Virus record (IMG/VR): IMGVR_UViG_3300035181_000391
Span: 1-25,972 of that record
DNA: 25,972 nt
Strand: one strand, 5' to 3'
Source: a virus
Below the pieces are notes generated by a model, which was not told the origin of the DNA, searched no databases, and saw only the letters and a list, made by a program, of their open reading frames with translations. Positions within the stretch are counted from its first letter, which is position 1, and every line of letters begins with the position of its first letter. Shown here piece by piece: positions 2,301 through 22,838 of this stretch. The translations under genes and the position numbers were made by a program.

Positions 2301-2723
2301 TCAGGTCATCGCGCTTGATGCAAGCTGGATGATGGAGCCCGCGAGCAGCATGGGGCTGTTGTCGCCCGATGGCGTGGTGCCGCCCGTGATCTGCACATCG
2401 CCACCGCTGGCTGCGTCAGTCACGGTGCCGTCTGCGATGCGGTCGCCCGATGCGCTCAGCCAGCGCACCCAGCGCGGAATGCCCGCCGTCAGCACCAGGC
2501 CGCCGGGCTCTGATGCCAGCGCAAACGAGAGCACGCCGCCCGTGACGGTGGCGCAGGGCTTGGCGAGCAGGATTTCAGCCTGCGGCGCTTGGCCTGGTGC
2601 GCCAGGGCCTGGGTAGGCGTTGGTGAAGAATTGCAGCCGCGCGCTGCCCGGGCCGCTGTCGGCTTGGGCGATGGTTGCAGCGAGCTGCGCTTCGAGAACG
2701 GCGGTGGAGACGCTCCAAGTCAT
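2301..2723 (-). CDS. Hypothetical tail-tip protein (140 aa)
   Basis: The start at 2723 forms an ATGA overlap with the stop of the upstream 456-aa gene, so translation is probably coupled. The protein begins with a short amphipathic helix (VSTAVLEAQLAATIAQA). It continues with beta-rich, Gly/Ser/Ala-rich sequence (ARLQFFTNAYP, VLSFALAS, GGLVLTAGIPRWVRWLSASG, DVQITGG). There is no signal peptide, membrane segment or catalytic motif. It lies between two large tail proteins and has the composition of a structural beta protein. I do not recognise a named family. A minor tail-tip role follows only from position. Confidence 0.75.
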   Translation of the reverse strand: MTWSVSTAVLEAQLAATIAQADSGPGSARLQFFTNAYPGPGAPGQAPQAEILLAKPCATVTGGVLSFALASEPGGLVLTAGIPRWVRWLSASGDRIADGTVTDAASGGDVQITGGTTPSGDNSPMLLAGSIIQLASSAMT

Positions 2724-17246: not shown

Positions 17247-17996
17247 TCAGGTTCCCGCGCCTGCGTCGCCTGCGAGTAGCTTGCGGATAAGCGCAATGAC
17301 GATCTCGACAGCCGCGATTTGCACGCCTACCGCAAGCGCGGCGCTTGTCATGGATTCCTGGAGCGCCCCGATTTTCTGTTCCGAAACGGTTGCGAGCGTG
17401 TCCGACCATACCGTCGGCTTCGCGCCCCATCCTGGGTCTGCCACGCCTTCAGCGGGAGGGTTTTCCGTCACGCCCCCGCGCCCGCGCGCTTGGTCGGCGG
17501 AAAGCGAGCGCAGGGTGCACCGACATCGAAACCCGAGCGGAGGCGAATGTGTGTCCCAAAACGGATCATCAACAGGTCGAATCGTGCCGTCGAGCGCAAG
17601 ATGAGAAGGCCGCGTTCGGCTGTCGTTGATGGCGTCGTACATGAGATATGGCCGGGTTGACTTCGTTTCCTCGAAGCTCCTCCAATGCCCGGCGTTGTAG
17701 GCCGTCTGCACCGCGTTTCGGAAGATCGTTTCCAGGCGATGATCCGGCAGGCTCCAATCCTGGCTCTCGGCCCATTTTTGGAACTCCTGCAACGTGCCGC
17801 CGTCTGCGACATGGCGGGCAAGCTCATCTGCCACGCGCTGAATCTGATCCAGCTTTGCAAGGCCAGAGACGGTGAATGACTGGGTGCGCTTTTCGTCTTC
17901 GAGCGCGTAGAAAACATCCGGCAGCGTGACGTTTTGACTGCGCAGATCGGCAATGATTTTCGACGCTGGGTCGTCGAGTGGAACCTTCACAGCCAT
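17247..17996 (-). CDS. Mu gpF-like head morphogenesis protein (249 aa)
   Basis: The start is ATG at 17996, overlapping the upstream 86-aa gene by 10 nt. The family signature is clear in the middle: LETIFRNAVQTAYNAGHWRS, PYLMYDAINDSRTRPSHLAL, DGTIRPVDDPFWDTHSPPLG and FRCRCTLRSLS. The Asn-Asp-x-R-T-R-P-x-H and C-x-C residues are hallmarks of the Phage_Mu_F (SPP1 gp7-like) family. In Mu and SPP1 this minor head protein binds the portal and is carried in the virion. The C-terminal 60 residues include a hydrophobic stretch (SAALAVGVQIAAVEIVIALI), which may be a membrane or packing helix. Unlike in Mu, it is separated from the portal by four genes. Confidence 0.9.
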   Translation of the reverse strand: MAVKVPLDDPASKIIADLRSQNVTLPDVFYALEDEKRTQSFTVSGLAKLDQIQRVADELARHVADGGTLQEFQKWAESQDWSLPDHRLETIFRNAVQTAYNAGHWRSFEETKSTRPYLMYDAINDSRTRPSHLALDGTIRPVDDPFWDTHSPPLGFRCRCTLRSLSADQARGRGGVTENPPAEGVADPGWGAKPTVWSDTLATVSEQKIGALQESMTSAALAVGVQIAAVEIVIALIRKLLAGDAGAGT

Positions 17997-18247
17997 ATCA
18001 GTTCTTCATCCCTCTTGCGGCGCGGCCTCTGACGGCGCACGCTGTCGTAGCCAAATCCAAACGTACCGCCCGGCCAAGGACGCGCCATGTCTGCCATCAA
18101 GTGATCAGCTGCTGACCCAACTGGCAATCCAGAGTAGGCGACCAGCGCGGACCCTGCGGTCGCACCACTGCTGATCATCAGCAGCAGCGCTCCAGCAGAT
18201 CCTCCGCTGCCAGCCAGTTGCCGCAGCCGTTCTCCAGCGGTCGTCAT
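17987..18247 (-). CDS. Small hydrophobic protein between repeat protein and gpF-like gene (86 aa)
   Basis: The start is ATG at 18247, in an ATGA overlap with the stop of the repeat protein. The longer frame to 18364 overlaps the upstream gene and was rejected. A Gly/Ala/Ser-rich apolar segment (residues about 16-46, including GALLLMISSGATAGSALVAY) could be a membrane helix or an Ala-rich structural helix. The C-terminus is basic (RRQRPRRKRDEELIWL). No family is recognised. Its tight coupling on both sides makes it a real gene despite its size. It may act with the repeat protein. Confidence 0.7.
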   Translation of the reverse strand: MTTAGERLRQLAGSGGSAGALLLMISSGATAGSALVAYSGLPVGSAADHLMADMARPWPGGTFGFGYDSVRRQRPRRKRDEELIWL

Positions 18248-19398
18248 GGCAGGCTCCGCGCCCAGACCGCATGCGCGGCGCGGGCGATCTCCGCTGCGGA
18301 CAACATGCCAGCGCCTGGCGTGTATACGGGCGGCGAGTCTGGCAGCGGCAGCGTCTGCGCCCACACGGCAGCGGCCAGTGCATCGATGGCGGCGAGCGAT
18401 AGAGACGGGCTGTTTGACGCGCCTTCAGCCATGCACGATGCTTCGGCGAGAGTTGCCGCGCCCTGCGCCCGGATAGCAAGCATCCCACCGGAGGCGCAGA
18501 TGGCGTCCCCAAGCTGCCCGGAGGTCATCTGTGCAGCCAGAAGCAGCGCCGCATCGCCAGCCGAGATCGCATCGTCCAGAGTCGCAGCGCCTTGCGCGCT
18601 GATTTGCAGCCTGCCAGCGCCTGCCATGCTGGCGTCTGCAAGCGTTGTCGAAGCCTGCGCGCGGATCGGCAGGATGCCAGTGGCCGCAAGCGCTGCGCCA
18701 GAGAGAGTCGCTGCTGCCTGCCCTCGCACGGCAAGCGCACCGGTCGCCGAGAGTGCAGCAGCCTCCAGCACGCTTGCTGCCTGCGCACCGATGGCAAGCT
18801 GACCGGCCCCGCCCGATGTGGCATTGGCAAGCGTCAAAGACGCCTGCGCCCTGATGGCAAGCGAGCTGATGGCTGATGCGGTAGCGGCTGCAAGCGCGGA
18901 GACCACTTGCCCATTGATGGCAAGCGCGCCGGATGCGGAAAGGGTGGCCCCAGCCAGAACAGACGCCCCTTGACCGCTGATCGCCAGCGTACCCGTTGCG
19001 GTGGCTACAACCTGCTCCAGCGTTGCATCAAGCGCGCCATTGATTCCTGACGAACCCATCGATCCAGATGCCGAAAGCAGGGTCGAATCGAGCGTTGCCG
19101 CCCCCTGCGCCTGGAGGGCCAGCGTCGCGCCGACGGATGCGGTCAGAGTCGCCAGCAACATGCTGGTGCTGCCTTGGATCGCCAGGCCGCCCGTGGCAGA
19201 TACCGATACCGCGCCTAGGGTTGTTGCCAGCGTACCCGTTCTCGGGCCGCTTGCGGTCGCGCCGAATATCCACGCGCCCCATACCTTGGCCTCGGTGTCA
19301 TCCAGGTCGGCCCAGGCAATGCTCGCGTAGGTCTGCGCCGCGCTGCGCTTGATGTGCCGCGCCTTCAGCCAGCCGTTGATCTGCGCGGCGGCTGTCAT
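18244..19398 (-). CDS. Ala/Gly-rich repeat protein of unknown function (384 aa)
   Basis: The start is ATG at 19398 with a weak AAGGG upstream. Residues 1-50 are a unique head (INGWLKARHIKRSAAQTYAS then WADLDDTEAKVWGAWIFGA). Residues about 54-330 are roughly 13 imperfect 21-residue repeats of the type [GA]Q-x-A-x-x-L-x-x-A-x-L-S-A-x-G-x-L-A-I. The C-terminus carries two copies of an AxAVWA[Q/R][T/S]LP motif (near 342-351 and 375-384). Regular turns and hydrophobic positions suggest a beta-solenoid or similar fibrous structure. The location between portal and gpF-like genes points to a virion or head-associated protein. I recall repeats of this flavour in other phage structural genes, but no function. 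Confidence 0.75.
   Translation of the reverse strand: MTAAAQINGWLKARHIKRSAAQTYASIAWADLDDTEAKVWGAWIFGATASGPRTGTLATTLGAVSVSATGGLAIQGSTSMLLATLTASVGATLALQAQGAATLDSTLLSASGSMGSSGINGALDATLEQVVATATGTLAISGQGASVLAGATLSASGALAINGQVVSALAAATASAISSLAIRAQASLTLANATSGGAGQLAIGAQAASVLEAAALSATGALAVRGQAAATLSGAALAATGILPIRAQASTTLADASMAGAGRLQISAQGAATLDDAISAGDAALLLAAQMTSGQLGDAICASGGMLAIRAQGAATLAEASCMAEGASNSPSLSLAAIDALAAAVWAQTLPLPDSPPVYTPGAGMLSAAEIARAAHAVWARSLP
18409..19239 (-). repeat. About thirteen 63-bp (21-aa) coding repeats
   Basis: Units such as SGQGASVLAGATLSASGAL (plus AI), GAQAASVLEAAALSATGAL (plus AV) and RGQAAATLSGAALAATGIL (plus PI) follow each other with a period of 21 residues. The central units match best. 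The first four and the last unit are diverged, and two units carry insertions of one or two residues. On the DNA, gatggcaagc-type strings recur at the unit junctions. Divergence between units suggests an old array under protein-level selection, not a recent expansion. Confidence 0.75.
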
Positions 19399-19401
19399 GG
19401 A

Positions 19402-20208
19402 TTACCCTTGCGAGTACACCACGTGCCCGCTGATGTTGCTCGCCGTCGTGGTAGACGGAACGAACAGCAGGAATGGAACGCTGCCGTCATACATGCGCGG
19501 CATTCCAGAGGTGATCGCGTCGATGGCCGCCGGTACGTTGGCAGACGTGATCTCAAGCCGCGCAATCTCGCGGTATGCGACAAGCGATGCGGCCCCAGAA
19601 GTCCAGGTTGCAGAGAGCGTGAAAGTCTGTACCGACTGCACGCCGGTATCTCCAGCGGCCAGGCCCATCGGATAAAACGCCCCGACAGCGGACGATGCGA
19701 CGCCGGTCAAAATGCCCGTGCCAGTCTGACCAGCCGTTCCGGCCTGGTTGGTGTAGCTCATGGTGAATACGGGCGTGCCTGATCCAGTCGCCGTCGTCAC
19801 CTCAAGGCCGATCAAAACCTGAGTGCCGGCGCTAGCACCGTTGGCATCGCGCGCGGGCCACGCCGCGGAGTTTACGTTCTGCGCGGTCGTTGCAGTCAGG
19901 TTCAGGCCAGAGTTGTGCCAGAGTCGGTCGCACAAGATGAGCGTGCCAGCGACGGATGCCTGGGCCTGAAATCGCGCCAGGTAAATGTTCTTGCCGGCGA
20001 CTGCGGCGGGGAATGGGATTTGACCGCCATAGCTGGTGAGCGCAGCGCCAGACATGCCAGAAGCCGGCGCAACAGCCGACCCAGGCGTGCCTGCGATGTA
20101 GAACAAGCTCTGCGGGCGGCCAGCAACAAGCGTGGGCGTTGCCGCCTTGGCGACAGATGCGGGTGGGAGCATCCCCGCGAGCAGTTGATCGAGCGTGGTG
20201 ATCGCCAT
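19402..20208 (-). CDS. Putative virion structural protein (268 aa)
   Basis: The start is ATG at 20208, 6 nt after the previous stop; no strong Shine-Dalgarno site is visible. It opens with a helix (TTLDQLLAGMLPPASVAKA). Then comes beta-rich, Gly/Ser/Thr/Ala-rich sequence: SLFYIAGTPGSAVAP, NIYLARFQAQASVAGTLILC, VLIGLEVTTATGSGTPVFTM and TFTLSATWTSGAASLVAYRE. It ends PFLLFVPSTTTASNISGHVV. This is the composition of a capsid or fibre beta-sandwich. Comparable proteins occur in other phage genomes without assigned function. It belongs to the four-gene block between portal and gpF-like genes, so a head-surface or portal-vertex role is possible but unproven. Confidence 0.75.
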   Translation of the reverse strand: MAITTLDQLLAGMLPPASVAKAATPTLVAGRPQSLFYIAGTPGSAVAPASGMSGAALTSYGGQIPFPAAVAGKNIYLARFQAQASVAGTLILCDRLWHNSGLNLTATTAQNVNSAAWPARDANGASAGTQVLIGLEVTTATGSGTPVFTMSYTNQAGTAGQTGTGILTGVASSAVGAFYPMGLAAGDTGVQSVQTFTLSATWTSGAASLVAYREIARLEITSANVPAAIDAITSGMPRMYDGSVPFLLFVPSTTTASNISGHVVYSQG

Positions 20209-20214
20209 GATCGC

Positions 20215-20622
20215 TTAGGCGTTGCCGTCGGTCAGAGTGAACGACGTGACGGTGAAGCTCTGACCAACGGCGAAGTTGACGTTATCGACTTGCAGGTCGC
20301 CACCGCCGCCAGTCGCCGTGACCGTGCCTTGCAGGTGGCAGGTCGTTCCTGCCGAGTCGTAGATGCGAAAGTGCCCGGCAGTTCCTGAGGCATCGGCGCT
20401 GGTGTCCTGCCACGTACCGGACATGCTCTTGCTGCCGGATGCGGCGGCGGCCATCCAGTCCGAGGGCAGGGTGACCGTGGCGAGCACGGTTCCGGAGTCT
20501 GCCGTCGCACATGATGCCGGGGCTGCGCCGGTGCGAATCTTCATGACAGCGGACGCGCCGATGGCGGTCTCGATGGCGTCAAGGCGGGCGTTGCGGACGG
20601 GAACAGAAAACTGGATAGCCAT
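20215..20622 (-). CDS. Putative small virion structural protein (135 aa)
   Basis: The start is ATG at 20622 with AAGGAG at 20632-20637 and a 9-nt spacer, a sign of good expression. The N-terminus FSVPVRNARLDAIETAIGAS is followed by MKIRTGAAPASCATADSGTV and strand-rich sequence with Ser/Gly/Thr (TVTLPSDWMAAAASGSK, GHFRIYDSAGTTCHLQGTVT). It ends VGQSFTVTSFTLTDGNA. This is a recognisable phage protein type with an R-N-A-[RM]-L-D-A-I-E-x-x-I-G opening, usually hypothetical and near head genes. A small decoration or fibre-associated role is inferred. It is the first gene after the portal. Confidence 0.78.
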   Translation of the reverse strand: MAIQFSVPVRNARLDAIETAIGASAVMKIRTGAAPASCATADSGTVLATVTLPSDWMAAAASGSKSMSGTWQDTSADASGTAGHFRIYDSAGTTCHLQGTVTATGGGGDLQVDNVNFAVGQSFTVTSFTLTDGNA

Positions 20623-20628
20623 GATTGG

Positions 20629-22434
20629 TTACTCCTTAGGTTGGTCGGTTTCGTAGGTCGTGACGGTGCGGGTGACTTCGAGGGTGTTCGGATCGCGCTC
20701 GACGGTCTGAATGGCGCGGTTCGGGTGCGCCACCACCACCTGCGCTGGAGGCACTTCGGCGTTGAAGCTGACCTCTGGCGCTGCGACCTGCACATTGACC
20801 ACCGGCGGTTCGACGTTGACGATCGGCGCGGGCGCGGCCTCCATGCGCACGACCGGAGCGGGCTGCTCCGGCATGTGGATCGTGATTGGCGTCGTGAGGT
20901 TTACCGTCGGAGCGGATGCGGCCTCTCCGCTCGTTTGCGCTTTTCCGCCTGCATGCAGATACCCCATCACATCGGCGGCGAATAGGGCTCGCTCGAATAC
21001 TTGCCCGAACCGCGACGAATCCGCGTCGCGCATGGCGACGGCCAGTCGTTCGTACAGGTCGCCCACACTCTCCGCGCCCATGATGGCGGACTTGATCGCG
21101 GCGGAGTCGATCGGGCTGGCCACGGACGGGAGGATGCGTTCGATCTCATCCTCGATGGCCTGTTGCCCTGCGGTGAAGCGCGGTCGGTCTGGTTTGTGCG
21201 GCGCGTCGGGTGTGGCGAACGTTGCGGCCATGCCAGCGCCTACAGATTGACCTGACGCGCCGCCAGTTCCGACGCCAACGTCTGCAATTGCTGCCGCCTG
21301 ATCCGGCGTGAGTTCATTGAAGTCATCCGGCTCCAGGCCGTATTTTTCCTCGAGGTAGCGGCGCGTGAACTGGAGCATTCCCGACCTGACCAAGATTTCA
21401 TCGCGCTTGGCACGGTCCATTTGCAGCCCGGCTTCATCCTCCATGACGAAGCGAGGCGCTGGTAGCGCGTTGAGTGCTGCAAGGGTATCGAGCACCCGCT
21501 GCACCGCGTCAGTGAGCAGACGAATATCGGCGCGGCGCTTTTCCTGCCGGATCTCGTCATGCACCTCGCCCAATGCGCGATTGCCGCTGCCGCCGTCGGT
21601 TCCGCTGGTGAGCGTCTGCCCAAGGATCAGGCGTTGGATGCGCCGCGTGCATGCAATCTCGAACTCGGTGAACTTGTTGGGGCTGTTGCCAGGGGTATCG
21701 ACCGAGACGATTTCTTCATCTCGGTCGAGCGCTGCCACCGGCCCGCTCGATAGGCTGCGCAGCATCTCCACCATCGCCTGCTTGTCAGAGAGCGTGCGCC
21801 CAACGAGCAATGGAACGGCGGCCTGCTCCAGGAACTTTGCCCAAAAGCGCCAGCCGTGGGTGCGGAAGTACCACGGCCAATAGGCTTTTGCCAGCAGCGC
21901 CTCGCCCATCGGCTTGCGCAAGCTGCCCTGGTGCACGATGGCGAAGAACTTGCGCGGGTCGGTTTGCGTTTGGTCGTTGCGCCAAAGCAGCGTGCCGTCC
22001 GGTCGCAGCATGAACCACTCGAATGGGCATTCGATGATGCTGCCGATGGCGATCCTCCCGCCCACGGCGTCCACGTAGACCACCTCGAACACGCTGTAGC
22101 CATATGGGACAGCGCCCCAAGCTGCCGACATGATGGAAGGAATCGCGCCCGCCGCCGCATCCTCAAAGAACTGGCGCGCGCGCGATTGGTCGTGCTCGAT
22201 GCGCCAAGGCGTGTTGAGCGCGGCATCGCGGCGCGTCTCGATGGCAGCAGACACCTCATCATCGTCCGCGATCCTCCGAAGCTTGGAGCGGTCGATACCG
22301 AGTTGTGCCAGTACTTCATCGGCGTCCCCGAGCCACCCGAAACGAGCCAATGCCCGCTCGATGGAGACGGCTGAGGTGTATGCGGTCGGTGCTTGTGCCA
22401 TGATGCTCGATGATGTTGCCTGCCGTGCCGTCAT
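20629..22434 (-). CDS. Portal protein, Mu gp29-like, DUF935 (601 aa)
   Basis: The start is ATG at 22434, in an ATGA overlap with the Mor-like gene stop; the longer frame to 22488 lies inside that gene. Residues about 20-390 have the DUF935 portal pattern: DEVSAAIETRRDAALNTPWR, AWGAVPYGYSVFEVVY, YWPWYFRTHGWRFWAKFLEQ, FEIACTRRIQRLILGQTLTS and GEVHDEIRQEKRRADIRLL. Residues 424-495 are the helical C-terminal part (IEDEIERILPSVASPIDSAA). Residues about 508-601 are a Val/Pro/Asn-rich extension with NV-type strands (PIVNVEPPVVNVQVAAPEV) and a final TVERDPNTLEVTRTVTTYE. Portals form the dodecameric DNA gate and dock the terminase. Its place after terminase agrees. Confidence 0.93.
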   Translation of the reverse strand: MTARQATSSSIMAQAPTAYTSAVSIERALARFGWLGDADEVLAQLGIDRSKLRRIADDDEVSAAIETRRDAALNTPWRIEHDQSRARQFFEDAAAGAIPSIMSAAWGAVPYGYSVFEVVYVDAVGGRIAIGSIIECPFEWFMLRPDGTLLWRNDQTQTDPRKFFAIVHQGSLRKPMGEALLAKAYWPWYFRTHGWRFWAKFLEQAAVPLLVGRTLSDKQAMVEMLRSLSSGPVAALDRDEEIVSVDTPGNSPNKFTEFEIACTRRIQRLILGQTLTSGTDGGSGNRALGEVHDEIRQEKRRADIRLLTDAVQRVLDTLAALNALPAPRFVMEDEAGLQMDRAKRDEILVRSGMLQFTRRYLEEKYGLEPDDFNELTPDQAAAIADVGVGTGGASGQSVGAGMAATFATPDAPHKPDRPRFTAGQQAIEDEIERILPSVASPIDSAAIKSAIMGAESVGDLYERLAVAMRDADSSRFGQVFERALFAADVMGYLHAGGKAQTSGEAASAPTVNLTTPITIHMPEQPAPVVRMEAAPAPIVNVEPPVVNVQVAAPEVSFNAEVPPAQVVVAHPNRAIQTVERDPNTLEVTRTVTTYETDQPKE

Positions 22435-22838
22435 CCGTTCGGAACTAAGTCCGGCGTATCGTCGCCAAAGAGCGGGAGCGTGCTGCATGCGGCTGAAAAT
22501 CGCTTTTCGAGCAGCTTGCGCGCGCCGCGCTCGGTGTATCCGCTCGGGCGCGTCAGCGCTTTGGCAACCTCAGACCAGCTTTTGCCTTGCGCTCGCATCT
22601 CCGCTGCGCGGCGGCGGTTGTGCTCGGTGTGCAGCCGCTGGCTGCTGGCGACGTAGAGCCGCTCGCCTTGGAAGTAGTCGCAAAGCCTCGCCGCATCACG
22701 CTCGCCAATGGCCTGCACCAGTGCATCCCACGTCCGTCCTTGGTGACGGACAGGAACGCGGATTTCTCGGCCATTGAAGGCCAGAGCCAGGCGTGCGGCT
22801 GCACCGTGTCCGAGCAAATCGACAATCTCCGGCATCAT
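22431..22838 (-). CDS. Mor-like transcription activator family protein (135 aa)
   Basis: The start is ATG at 22838, in a TGATG overlap with the terminase large subunit stop; a second ATG follows directly. Residues 24-64 read EIRVPV..., LVQAIGERDAARLCDYFQGE and RLYVAS. Compared with Mu Mor, this matches its dimerisation part and the GG.QVYIP turn. Residues 76-113 (RRAAEMRAQGKSWSEVAKAL, then YTERGARKLLEKRF) match the Mor helix-turn-helix with its recognition helix. Mor and C activate middle and late Mu promoters. A member inside the packaging operon could act as a late regulator or bind phage DNA for packaging. The recognition is from memory of the Mor sequence; no operator was identified. Confidence 0.65.
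   Translation of the reverse strand: MMPEIVDLLGHGAAARLALAFNGREIRVPVRHQGRTWDALVQAIGERDAARLCDYFQGERLYVASSQRLHTEHNRRRAAEMRAQGKSWSEVAKALTRPSGYTERGARKLLEKRFSAACSTLPLFGDDTPDLVPNG

What the first reader, a model, noticed from the sequence alone, without database searches (positions are those of the whole stretch)
17987..20622. Four-gene cassette inserted between portal and gpF-like gene
In Mu the portal (gp29) and gpF-like (gp30) genes are neighbours. Here about 2.6 kb with four coupled genes separates them: a 135-aa protein with a strong ribosome site, a 268-aa beta-rich protein, a 384-aa repeat protein and an 86-aa hydrophobic protein. None has a known function. Their place suggests a portal-vertex or head-surface structure, such as a head fibre or host-attachment module, which would be an undescribed virion part.
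Basis: inference. Interest (0 to 1): 0.55.

Follow-up and report, generated by a model that had tools for sequence, protein, structure and literature searches.

The report
Swappable phage attachment-fibre gene cassette
Between two head genes this bacterial virus carries a small gene set that probably builds an accessory fibre for gripping its host; the middle of the set is swapped like a cartridge between quite unrelated viruses.

Summary
Four intact, tightly coupled minus-strand genes (A 135 aa, B 268, C 384, D 86) lie between a Mu-type portal and a Mu-F gene that are nearly adjacent in named relatives. All four are under purifying selection.

A belongs to PHROG 3758. Its solved relatives sit in tail-fibre complexes: the phage 7-7-1 tail-fibre model (garland) and a KPP25 entry. 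Its predicted fold also resembles neck-whisker and fibre-adaptor proteins. FelixO1 and Sf14 keep their whisker genes in the same portal-to-capsid slot. B is a β-rich, probably jelly-roll protein. C is a conserved 51-residue head plus 21-residue repeats.

The A-[B]-C order recurs in unrelated phages, both between portal and capsid genes and among tail-fibre genes. A sharp 968-bp block, B plus the C head, is 84-91% identical between this lineage and phages with unrelated portals, capsids and tails. Other relatives keep A, the C tail and D but replace the centre.

Best reading: an accessory host-attachment fibre with an exchangeable receptor-binding centre. The 'head surface' half is not: the cassette stays when portal and capsid genes are swapped. 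Neck or tail attachment is open.

The parts
20215..20622 (-). Gene A, 135 aa: PHROG 3758 family, likely dimeric fibre adaptor (garland/whisker/gp8-like fold)
19402..20208 (-). Gene B, 268 aa: beta-rich, probably jelly-roll protein, likely receptor-binding or displayed part; uncharacterised family
18244..19398 (-). Gene C, 384 aa: W-motif head, 21-residue repeats, C-terminal tail; likely fibre shaft
19246..19398 (-). C head (residues 1-51, ...VWGAWIF...), conserved together with B across unrelated phages
18421..19239 (-). C repeat region, 13 units of about 21 aa
18247..18420 (-). C tail (residues 327-384, ...AAAVWAQTLPLP...HAVWARSLP), conserved with D inside the lineage
17987..18247 (-). Gene D, 86 aa: small hydrophobic protein with basic C-terminus; resident of the slot, not part of the widespread core
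19246..20213 (-). 968-bp exchange block (B plus C head), 84.5% and 91.0% identical to two contigs with unrelated flanks (L221, L131)
20629..22488 (-). Portal (Mu gp29 type), flank of the slot
17247..17996 (-). Mu gpF-like minor head protein, other flank
2301..2723 (-). Second, divergent PHROG 3758 protein near the 627-aa tail-end gene
   Evidence: 1e-7

Best explanation
The cassette encodes an accessory host-attachment fibre of the virion. A is a small dimeric adaptor of the garland/whisker/gp8-like kind that fixes the fibre to the tail or neck (family: shown; dimer and site: inferred). B is a beta-rich, probably jelly-roll domain displayed on the fibre, most likely the receptor-binding part (inferred). 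C binds B through its 51-residue head and forms a shaft of 21-residue repeats whose number can vary (repeats and length steps: shown; shaft: inferred). The C tail and D tie the fibre to this virus lineage (inferred). Recombination swaps the centre, B plus C head, between phages and leaves the virion-specific frame, A plus C tail plus D (pattern: shown). The usual reason for such swaps is change of host receptor (inferred).
For: A: profile match to 44nx_B (KPP25 ORF006, 7e-13) and 9rkv_A (phage 7-7-1 tail-fibre model, 9e-5); fold Z 11.1 to 9rkv_A over 131 residues. Section 10 of PMC12796354 describes garland homodimers around the distal tail fibres of 7-7-1; PMC10811340 (passages) says garland proteins share the fold of T4 gp8 and A511 gp105. 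44nx also holds KPP25 ORF005, A's neighbour. Linkage: the ORF after B carries repeats in 34 of 45 loci against 23 of 239 other ORFs; of 37 A loci 28 have a repeat ORF among the next four, 24 of them with period 21, against 5 of 37 in the preceding four; PHROG 3758 lies 9-61 bp upstream of B in 10 of the 13 contigs, of 50 searched, that carry it. Exchange: L009-L014 have B at 91-96% and C at 80-82% (only the head aligns), but A only at 37-39% and no other window gene within the flanks; sharp edges at the B start and after C codon 51. L128 keeps A (90%), C tail (64%) and D (62%) but has B at 54% and C head at 25%. C of four such phages differs in length by exact 21-aa steps, 427/448/469. B, C and D are less conserved in kin (mean 86, 79, 80%) than A (92), Mu-F (90) or capsid protein (97; 3 kin). 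Two unrelated Rhodobacter capsulatus YW1 phages share B at 88% inside a shared operon.
Against: No virion, binding or structural data exist for B, C or D. B's best fold matches (Z 8.4 or less, about 100 of 268 residues) are at background level and include capsid cement proteins. A's neck-whisker match (Z 7.3-7.5) is below the level to trust alone, and A has no sequence similarity to that protein (blastp E 1.6). The tail-not-head inference rests on one contig (L215) that covers the tail tube. Rapid change and exchange would also fit a display with another purpose than receptor binding.
Confidence: 0.62

Rival explanations
1. Neck whiskers: A, B and C form collar fibres fixed near the portal, with a mainly mechanical or tail-fibre-retracting role, as in Sf14/FelixO1, rather than receptor binding.
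For: FelixO1 keeps ORF54/ORF55 between portal and protease/capsid genes; ORF55 is the Sf14 neck chain 9c39_K and the Bas63 chain 9mt4_I, ORF54 is 9c39_I 'gp127'; PMC11821841 (passages) names gp30/gp31 (gp127/gp126) as whiskers. A's fold resembles 9c39_K and 9mt4_K. Portal - A - B - C - capsid order confirmed by PHROG in L151, L167, L168, L192, L199 and L202 (the A place taken by PF23140 in L199 and by an unassigned ORF in L202) with four portal and five capsid families.
Against: No relative of ORF54 or of the gp37 adapter was identified in the cassette (not searched systematically). The cassette survives portal and capsid replacement. In other phages the same genes lie among tail-fibre genes (L221; Leptothrix; RcZahn; Pan4).
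Confidence: 0.2
2. Head-surface decoration or head fibre: B is a cement-like jelly roll and C a flexible head fibre.
For: Gene place between portal and capsid; B resembles Pam1 cement (7eel_H, Z 7.6) and KHP40 cement (7dou_4, Z 6.3); PHROG files A under 'head and packaging'.
Against: The cassette is kept when the portal and Mu-F genes are swapped and no capsid match remains (L215, L217; L217 ends soon after Mu-F). B moves into a phage with an unrelated capsid at 91% identity. The window already has a lambda gpD-like decoration protein. A's solved relatives are in tail complexes.
Confidence: 0.1
3. Non-virion module (moron, chaperone or regulatory genes) that merely uses a permissive site in the structural operon.
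For: No direct virion data for B, C or D; D is hydrophobic.
Against: A's family members are in solved virion structures; repeats, beta-rich proteins and exchange fit surface parts.
Confidence: 0.05

Closest known systems
Garland proteins of Agrobacterium phages 7-7-1 and Milano (gp125/gp127)
   Same: A is a sequence and fold relative; small protein encoded next to a tail spike or fibre gene in Milano and 7-7-1
   Different: Garlands hang on fibres of contractile baseplates and no B or C was seen beside them; here A heads a B-C operon beside the portal
KPP25 ORF006 in PDB 44nx
   Same: Same family as A; co-deposited with the product of the next gene, ORF005
   Different: No B or C seen nearby; I found no paper for this entry
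Neck whiskers of Sf14/Bas63/FelixO1 (gp31 = ORF55)
   Same: Genomic slot between portal and capsid genes; similar small fold
   Different: No sequence similarity to A; partner gp30 rather than B and C
Podophage GP4 fiber I gp80 (PF23140) and GP4 fibre-tail adaptor (8jou)
   Same: PF23140 proteins take the A place beside B in some phages and match 8jou_a; A's fold resembles 8jou_a (Z 6.0)
   Different: A itself does not match PF23140
A-1(L) neck-fibre operon gp82-gp81-gp80
   Same: Self-contained fibre operon: anchor, repeated middle, distal part (PMC10966104, passages)
   Different: No similarity tested; its middle is many copies of one small protein, here repeats inside one chain; its distal module did not bind the host

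Membership tests
PHROG 3758 (virion structural protein) | Full-length profile match of A | tested here: met
   5e-35, residues 1-133 of 135
Garland-type tail-fibre adaptor (7-7-1, Milano) | Sequence profile match to the solved chain | tested here: met
   9rkv_A 8.8e-5
Garland-type tail-fibre adaptor (7-7-1, Milano) | Same fold | tested here: met
   Foldseek 1.2e-5; Z 11.1, rmsd 3.2, 131 of 139 residues; model pLDDT 76
Garland-type tail-fibre adaptor (7-7-1, Milano) | Homodimer bound to tail fibres in the virion | not testable with these tools
   Needs virion structure or pull-down
Sf14/FelixO1 neck whisker | Gene between portal and head protease/capsid genes | tested here: met
   window; FelixO1
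Sf14/FelixO1 neck whisker | Sequence relation of A to gp31/ORF55 | tested here: not met
   blastp E 1.6
Sf14/FelixO1 neck whisker | Fold relation of A to gp31 | tested here: inconclusive
   Z 7.3 and 7.5 over 106-107 residues, within the stated background range
PF23140 GP4 fiber I gp80 | Pfam match of A | tested here: not met
   No PF23140 match up to E 1
Head fibre or capsid decoration | Inherited together with the capsid genes | tested here: not met
   L215 and L217: A 89-93%, B 87-90%, but portal 29-30% and Mu-F 28-29%; no capsid match in L215, the one that reaches the tail tube
Head fibre or capsid decoration | Located on the capsid | not testable with these tools
   Needs virion imaging

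The most novel reading that the evidence does not exclude
A 'cartridge' adhesin: an undescribed fibre type in which a jelly-roll receptor binder (B) clips onto a conserved 51-residue head of a 21-residue-repeat shaft (C), held by exchangeable gp8/garland-type adaptors (PHROG 3758 or PF23140). The B plus C-head cartridge is traded intact between phages with unrelated virions that share a host, and the fibre can be mounted at the neck or at the tail.
Probability: 0.35. Interest if true: 0.68.

Novelty: new variant of a known kind. Interest (0 to 1): 0.5.

Why it matters
If right, it gives a mechanism for moving host recognition between phages of different build: virion-specific adaptor at one end, portable binding cartridge in the middle. 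It would put a function on a very common but unlabelled repeat protein (C) and on an unlabelled family (B), and it suggests that the 'head' labels of PHROG 3758 and PHROG 240 mislead annotation. The exchange edges name the exact pieces to test.

Tried and rejected
Rejected or uninformative: a head-spike idea (Rhodobacter GTA-like, recalled) - the B profile found no PDB chain better than E 0.47. B fold search: best PDB hits by Foldseek have TM about 0.2; VIA best Z 8.4 (6i56_A, XepA), 7.6 (Pam1 cement), 7.3 (7-7-1 long tail fibre), all near background; the BFVD relatives are all uncharacterised phage proteins. C: no PDB match, no Pfam match over cut-off in ten relatives; five of the ten match PHROG 38872 of unknown function. 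D: no match in 50,697 phage records; not similar to the small ORFs of KS10 and Y8A. I had thought that the C tail is kept in L220, where A-B-C is replaced; the match (score 46) does not exceed the best of 200 shuffles (49), so I dropped it. A first dN/dS for Mu-F used a wrong frame and is void; corrected. In one search the C protein picked for L129 may be the wrong ORF and is not used. A strict W-motif pattern for the C head found only 7 of 45 (2 of 239 controls) and is not used as a definition.

Counts and selections: PHROG 3758 and PF23140 were sought in 50 of 53 chosen B contigs (L174, L186, L200 dropped to meet the limit of 50; L148 and L151 are one 80% cluster). The 37 A loci come from 42 that I picked of the 80 returned; those without three downstream ORFs or with the same next ORF were dropped. 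The ten upstream ORFs were picked by size and place; 7 are portals, L198 is a terminase, L195 an unknown family, L163 unmatched. Of seven downstream ORFs tested as capsid proteins, six match (L162 does not). Control ORFs are not independent of each other. In L128/L129 and in L016/L017/L023 the flanks show replacement; only L215 (the whole L023 contig) also covers the tail tube. The mean portal identity includes a truncated portal (L018, 40%) and is not quoted.

Literature: GP4 and Bas63 papers were not found in the library; no paper names entry 44nx. One search for a 21-residue repeat in phage fibres listed no paper with that phrase among the 12 shown of 536. PMC12796354: passages and sections 10-11; PMC10811340, PMC11821841, PMC10966104: passages only. 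Mu gene order is recalled, beyond the three relatives read.
Full report
Observation. Four minus-strand ORFs lie at 20622-20215 (A, 135 aa), 20208-19402 (B, 268 aa), 19398-18244 (C, 384 aa) and 18247-17987 (D, 86 aa), between a Mu-type portal and a Mu-F gene. They are coupled by gaps of 6 and 3 nt and a 4-nt overlap. In MP29 the portal and F genes abut; in KS10 and Psychrobacter phage Y8A, the closest named portal match (31%), one short ORF lies between. So about 2.6 kb is extra. All four genes are under purifying selection (dN/dS 0.09-0.31).

What A is. A matches PHROG 3758 over its whole length. A profile of the family finds two solved chains. By tblastn of the aligned stretches these are KPP25 ORF006 and a 7-7-1 structural protein encoded beside a tail fibre gene. 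The 7-7-1 entry is the 'tail fibers' model; its paper describes garland homodimers around the distal fibres (PMC12796354, section 10). That 9rkv_A is the garland chain is my inference from its length, its gene place and its Milano relative. The Milano paper says garland proteins share the fold of T4 gp8 and of A511 gp105, a baseplate-to-fibre connector (PMC10811340, passages). The A model (pLDDT 76) gives Z 11.1 to 9rkv_A, then 7.5 and 7.3 to neck chains of Bas63 and Sf14, 6.0 to a GP4 fibre/adaptor chain, 5.2 to A511 gp105 and 4.7-5.1 to phi812 baseplate and arm chains. The rows after the first are weak one by one and are mixed with unrelated cellular proteins at Z 5-6, but they name the same kind of phage protein.

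The slot. The Sf14 and Bas63 neck chains are FelixO1 ORF55, and its neighbour ORF54 is Sf14 'gp127'. FelixO1 keeps both genes between portal and protease/capsid genes, and the Sf14 paper calls the products whiskers (PMC11821841, passages). This is the slot of the window cassette. The slot also recurs with B and C: portal upstream and capsid protein downstream were both confirmed by PHROG in L151, L167, L168, L192, L199 and L202, with four portal and five capsid families. But the same genes also sit among tail-fibre genes: after the central tail fibre J in a Leptothrix genome, after the tail-tip genes in RcZahn, at the end of the tail module in Pan4 (A with the same four-gene order, other proteins in the B and D places), and between tail-fibre and endolysin genes in L221.

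What B and C are. B has 128 confirmed relatives by an alignment scan of viral contigs (80 kept), none characterised; Pfam has none and PHROGs only a chance-level row (E 0.18). Its model is confident (pLDDT 87) and nearly all beta; a jelly roll is the likely class, but the matches are at background level. The ORF after B carries internal repeats in 34 of 45 representative loci, against 23 of 239 other ORFs. C of the window has a 51-residue head with the motif VWGAWIF, 13 repeats of about 21 residues, and a tail. A loci show the same pattern with other proteins in the B place: 28 of 37 have a repeat ORF among the next four, 24 with period 21, against 5 of 37 upstream. PHROG 3758 is on 13 of 50 B contigs, directly upstream of B in 10. 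PF23140, the GP4 fiber I family, is on 11 of 50, within 600 bp upstream of B in 6. On 27 of the 50 neither family was found (one contig has both), so other proteins or none fill the A place there. So the core is B-C, often headed by a small fibre adaptor whose family is exchangeable.

Exchange. Four patterns were seen. (1) Close kin keep everything. (2) L016, L017 and L023 keep A (89-93%), B (87-90%), C (68-76%) and D (56-67%, depending on the aligner) but have portal at 29-30% and Mu-F at 28-29%. Terminase is 76-87% identical there; the whole L023 contig (L215) also has the tail tube at 86%, but no capsid match. (3) L128 and L129 have the same foreign portal and F class (28-33%), keep A (87-90%) and D (54-62%), but B falls to 54% and 33%. 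(4) L009-L014 have B at 91-96% and the C head at 80-82%, while A is 37-39%. Nearly the whole contig of one (37,000 of 38,348 bases, L221-L222) has no other match to 25 window proteins; its portal, capsid and tail genes are of other families. DNA identity is 84.5% (L221) and 91.0% (L131) over exactly 968 bp, from 5 bp before the B start to C codon 51. So A follows the virion type, B with the C head moves, and the C tail with D stays with the lineage. In one sister (L220: portal, D and Mu-F at 69%) A-B-C is replaced by about 5 kb of other ORFs, of which only a 144-aa one has a family match, of unknown function.

Mechanism. Shown: family and likely fold of A, linkage, repeats, length steps of 21 aa in C (427, 448, 469), and the exchange edges. 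Inferred: A docks the fibre on the tail or neck; the C head holds B; the repeats form the shaft; B binds the host. Receptor binding is the usual reason for such exchange. It is also suggested by two unrelated phages of one host strain that share B at 88% and by lower conservation of B, C and D than of A, Mu-F and capsid protein in kin. It is not shown.

Site. Head surface is disfavoured by patterns 2 and 4. Neck is favoured by the slot and by the whisker comparison; tail is favoured by A's best solved relatives and by pattern 2, where the tail gene tested is kept while portal and capsid genes are not. That last argument rests on one contig. I leave neck against tail open.

Novelty. The adaptor is known in kind. 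The B family, the repeat protein C and their joint exchange as a cartridge were not found described in the searches made, which cover open papers only and were aimed mostly at A. Verdict: new variant of a known kind, interest 0.5.

Noticed in passing
window 2301-2723 (-): A second, divergent PHROG 3758 protein (1e-7) near the tail end of the genome, so the phage may carry two adaptor-type proteins, like the garland pair of Milano.
   Followed up: partly
L034 5166-6819 (same contig as L197); L036 205-1866; L204; L206: B is present as two or three tandem, diverged copies before C.
   Followed up: no
L025 6811-8616: C has an extra domain of about 216 aa between the head motif and the repeats.
   Followed up: no
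L220 4441-9458: In a sister with the same portal, D and Mu-F, about 5 kb of unrelated ORFs (645 and 471 aa among them, no Pfam or PHROG match) stands in place of A-B-C: a second, unrelated filling of the same slot.
   Followed up: partly
L215 9580-13055: A second cassette-like set after Mu-F: a PF23140 (GP4 fiber I) protein, three small ORFs and a 551-aa repeat protein.
   Followed up: partly
L005 7452-11078 and L008 6298-11069: A fibre-like operon with B (88% identical) is shared by RcMcDreamy, where it sits beside DNA polymerase, and RcZahn, where it follows the tail tip.
   Followed up: partly
PHROG 3758 and PHROG 240: Both are filed under head functions, although PHROG 240 proteins match Pfam 'GP4 fiber I' and PHROG 3758 has solved members in tail-fibre complexes; the labels look misleading.
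   Followed up: partly
L225 5363-5560: The 65-aa ORF between portal and Mu-F in Psychrobacter phage Y8A is labelled pyrimidine dimer DNA glycosylase, which looks like a wrong annotation for so short a protein.
   Followed up: no
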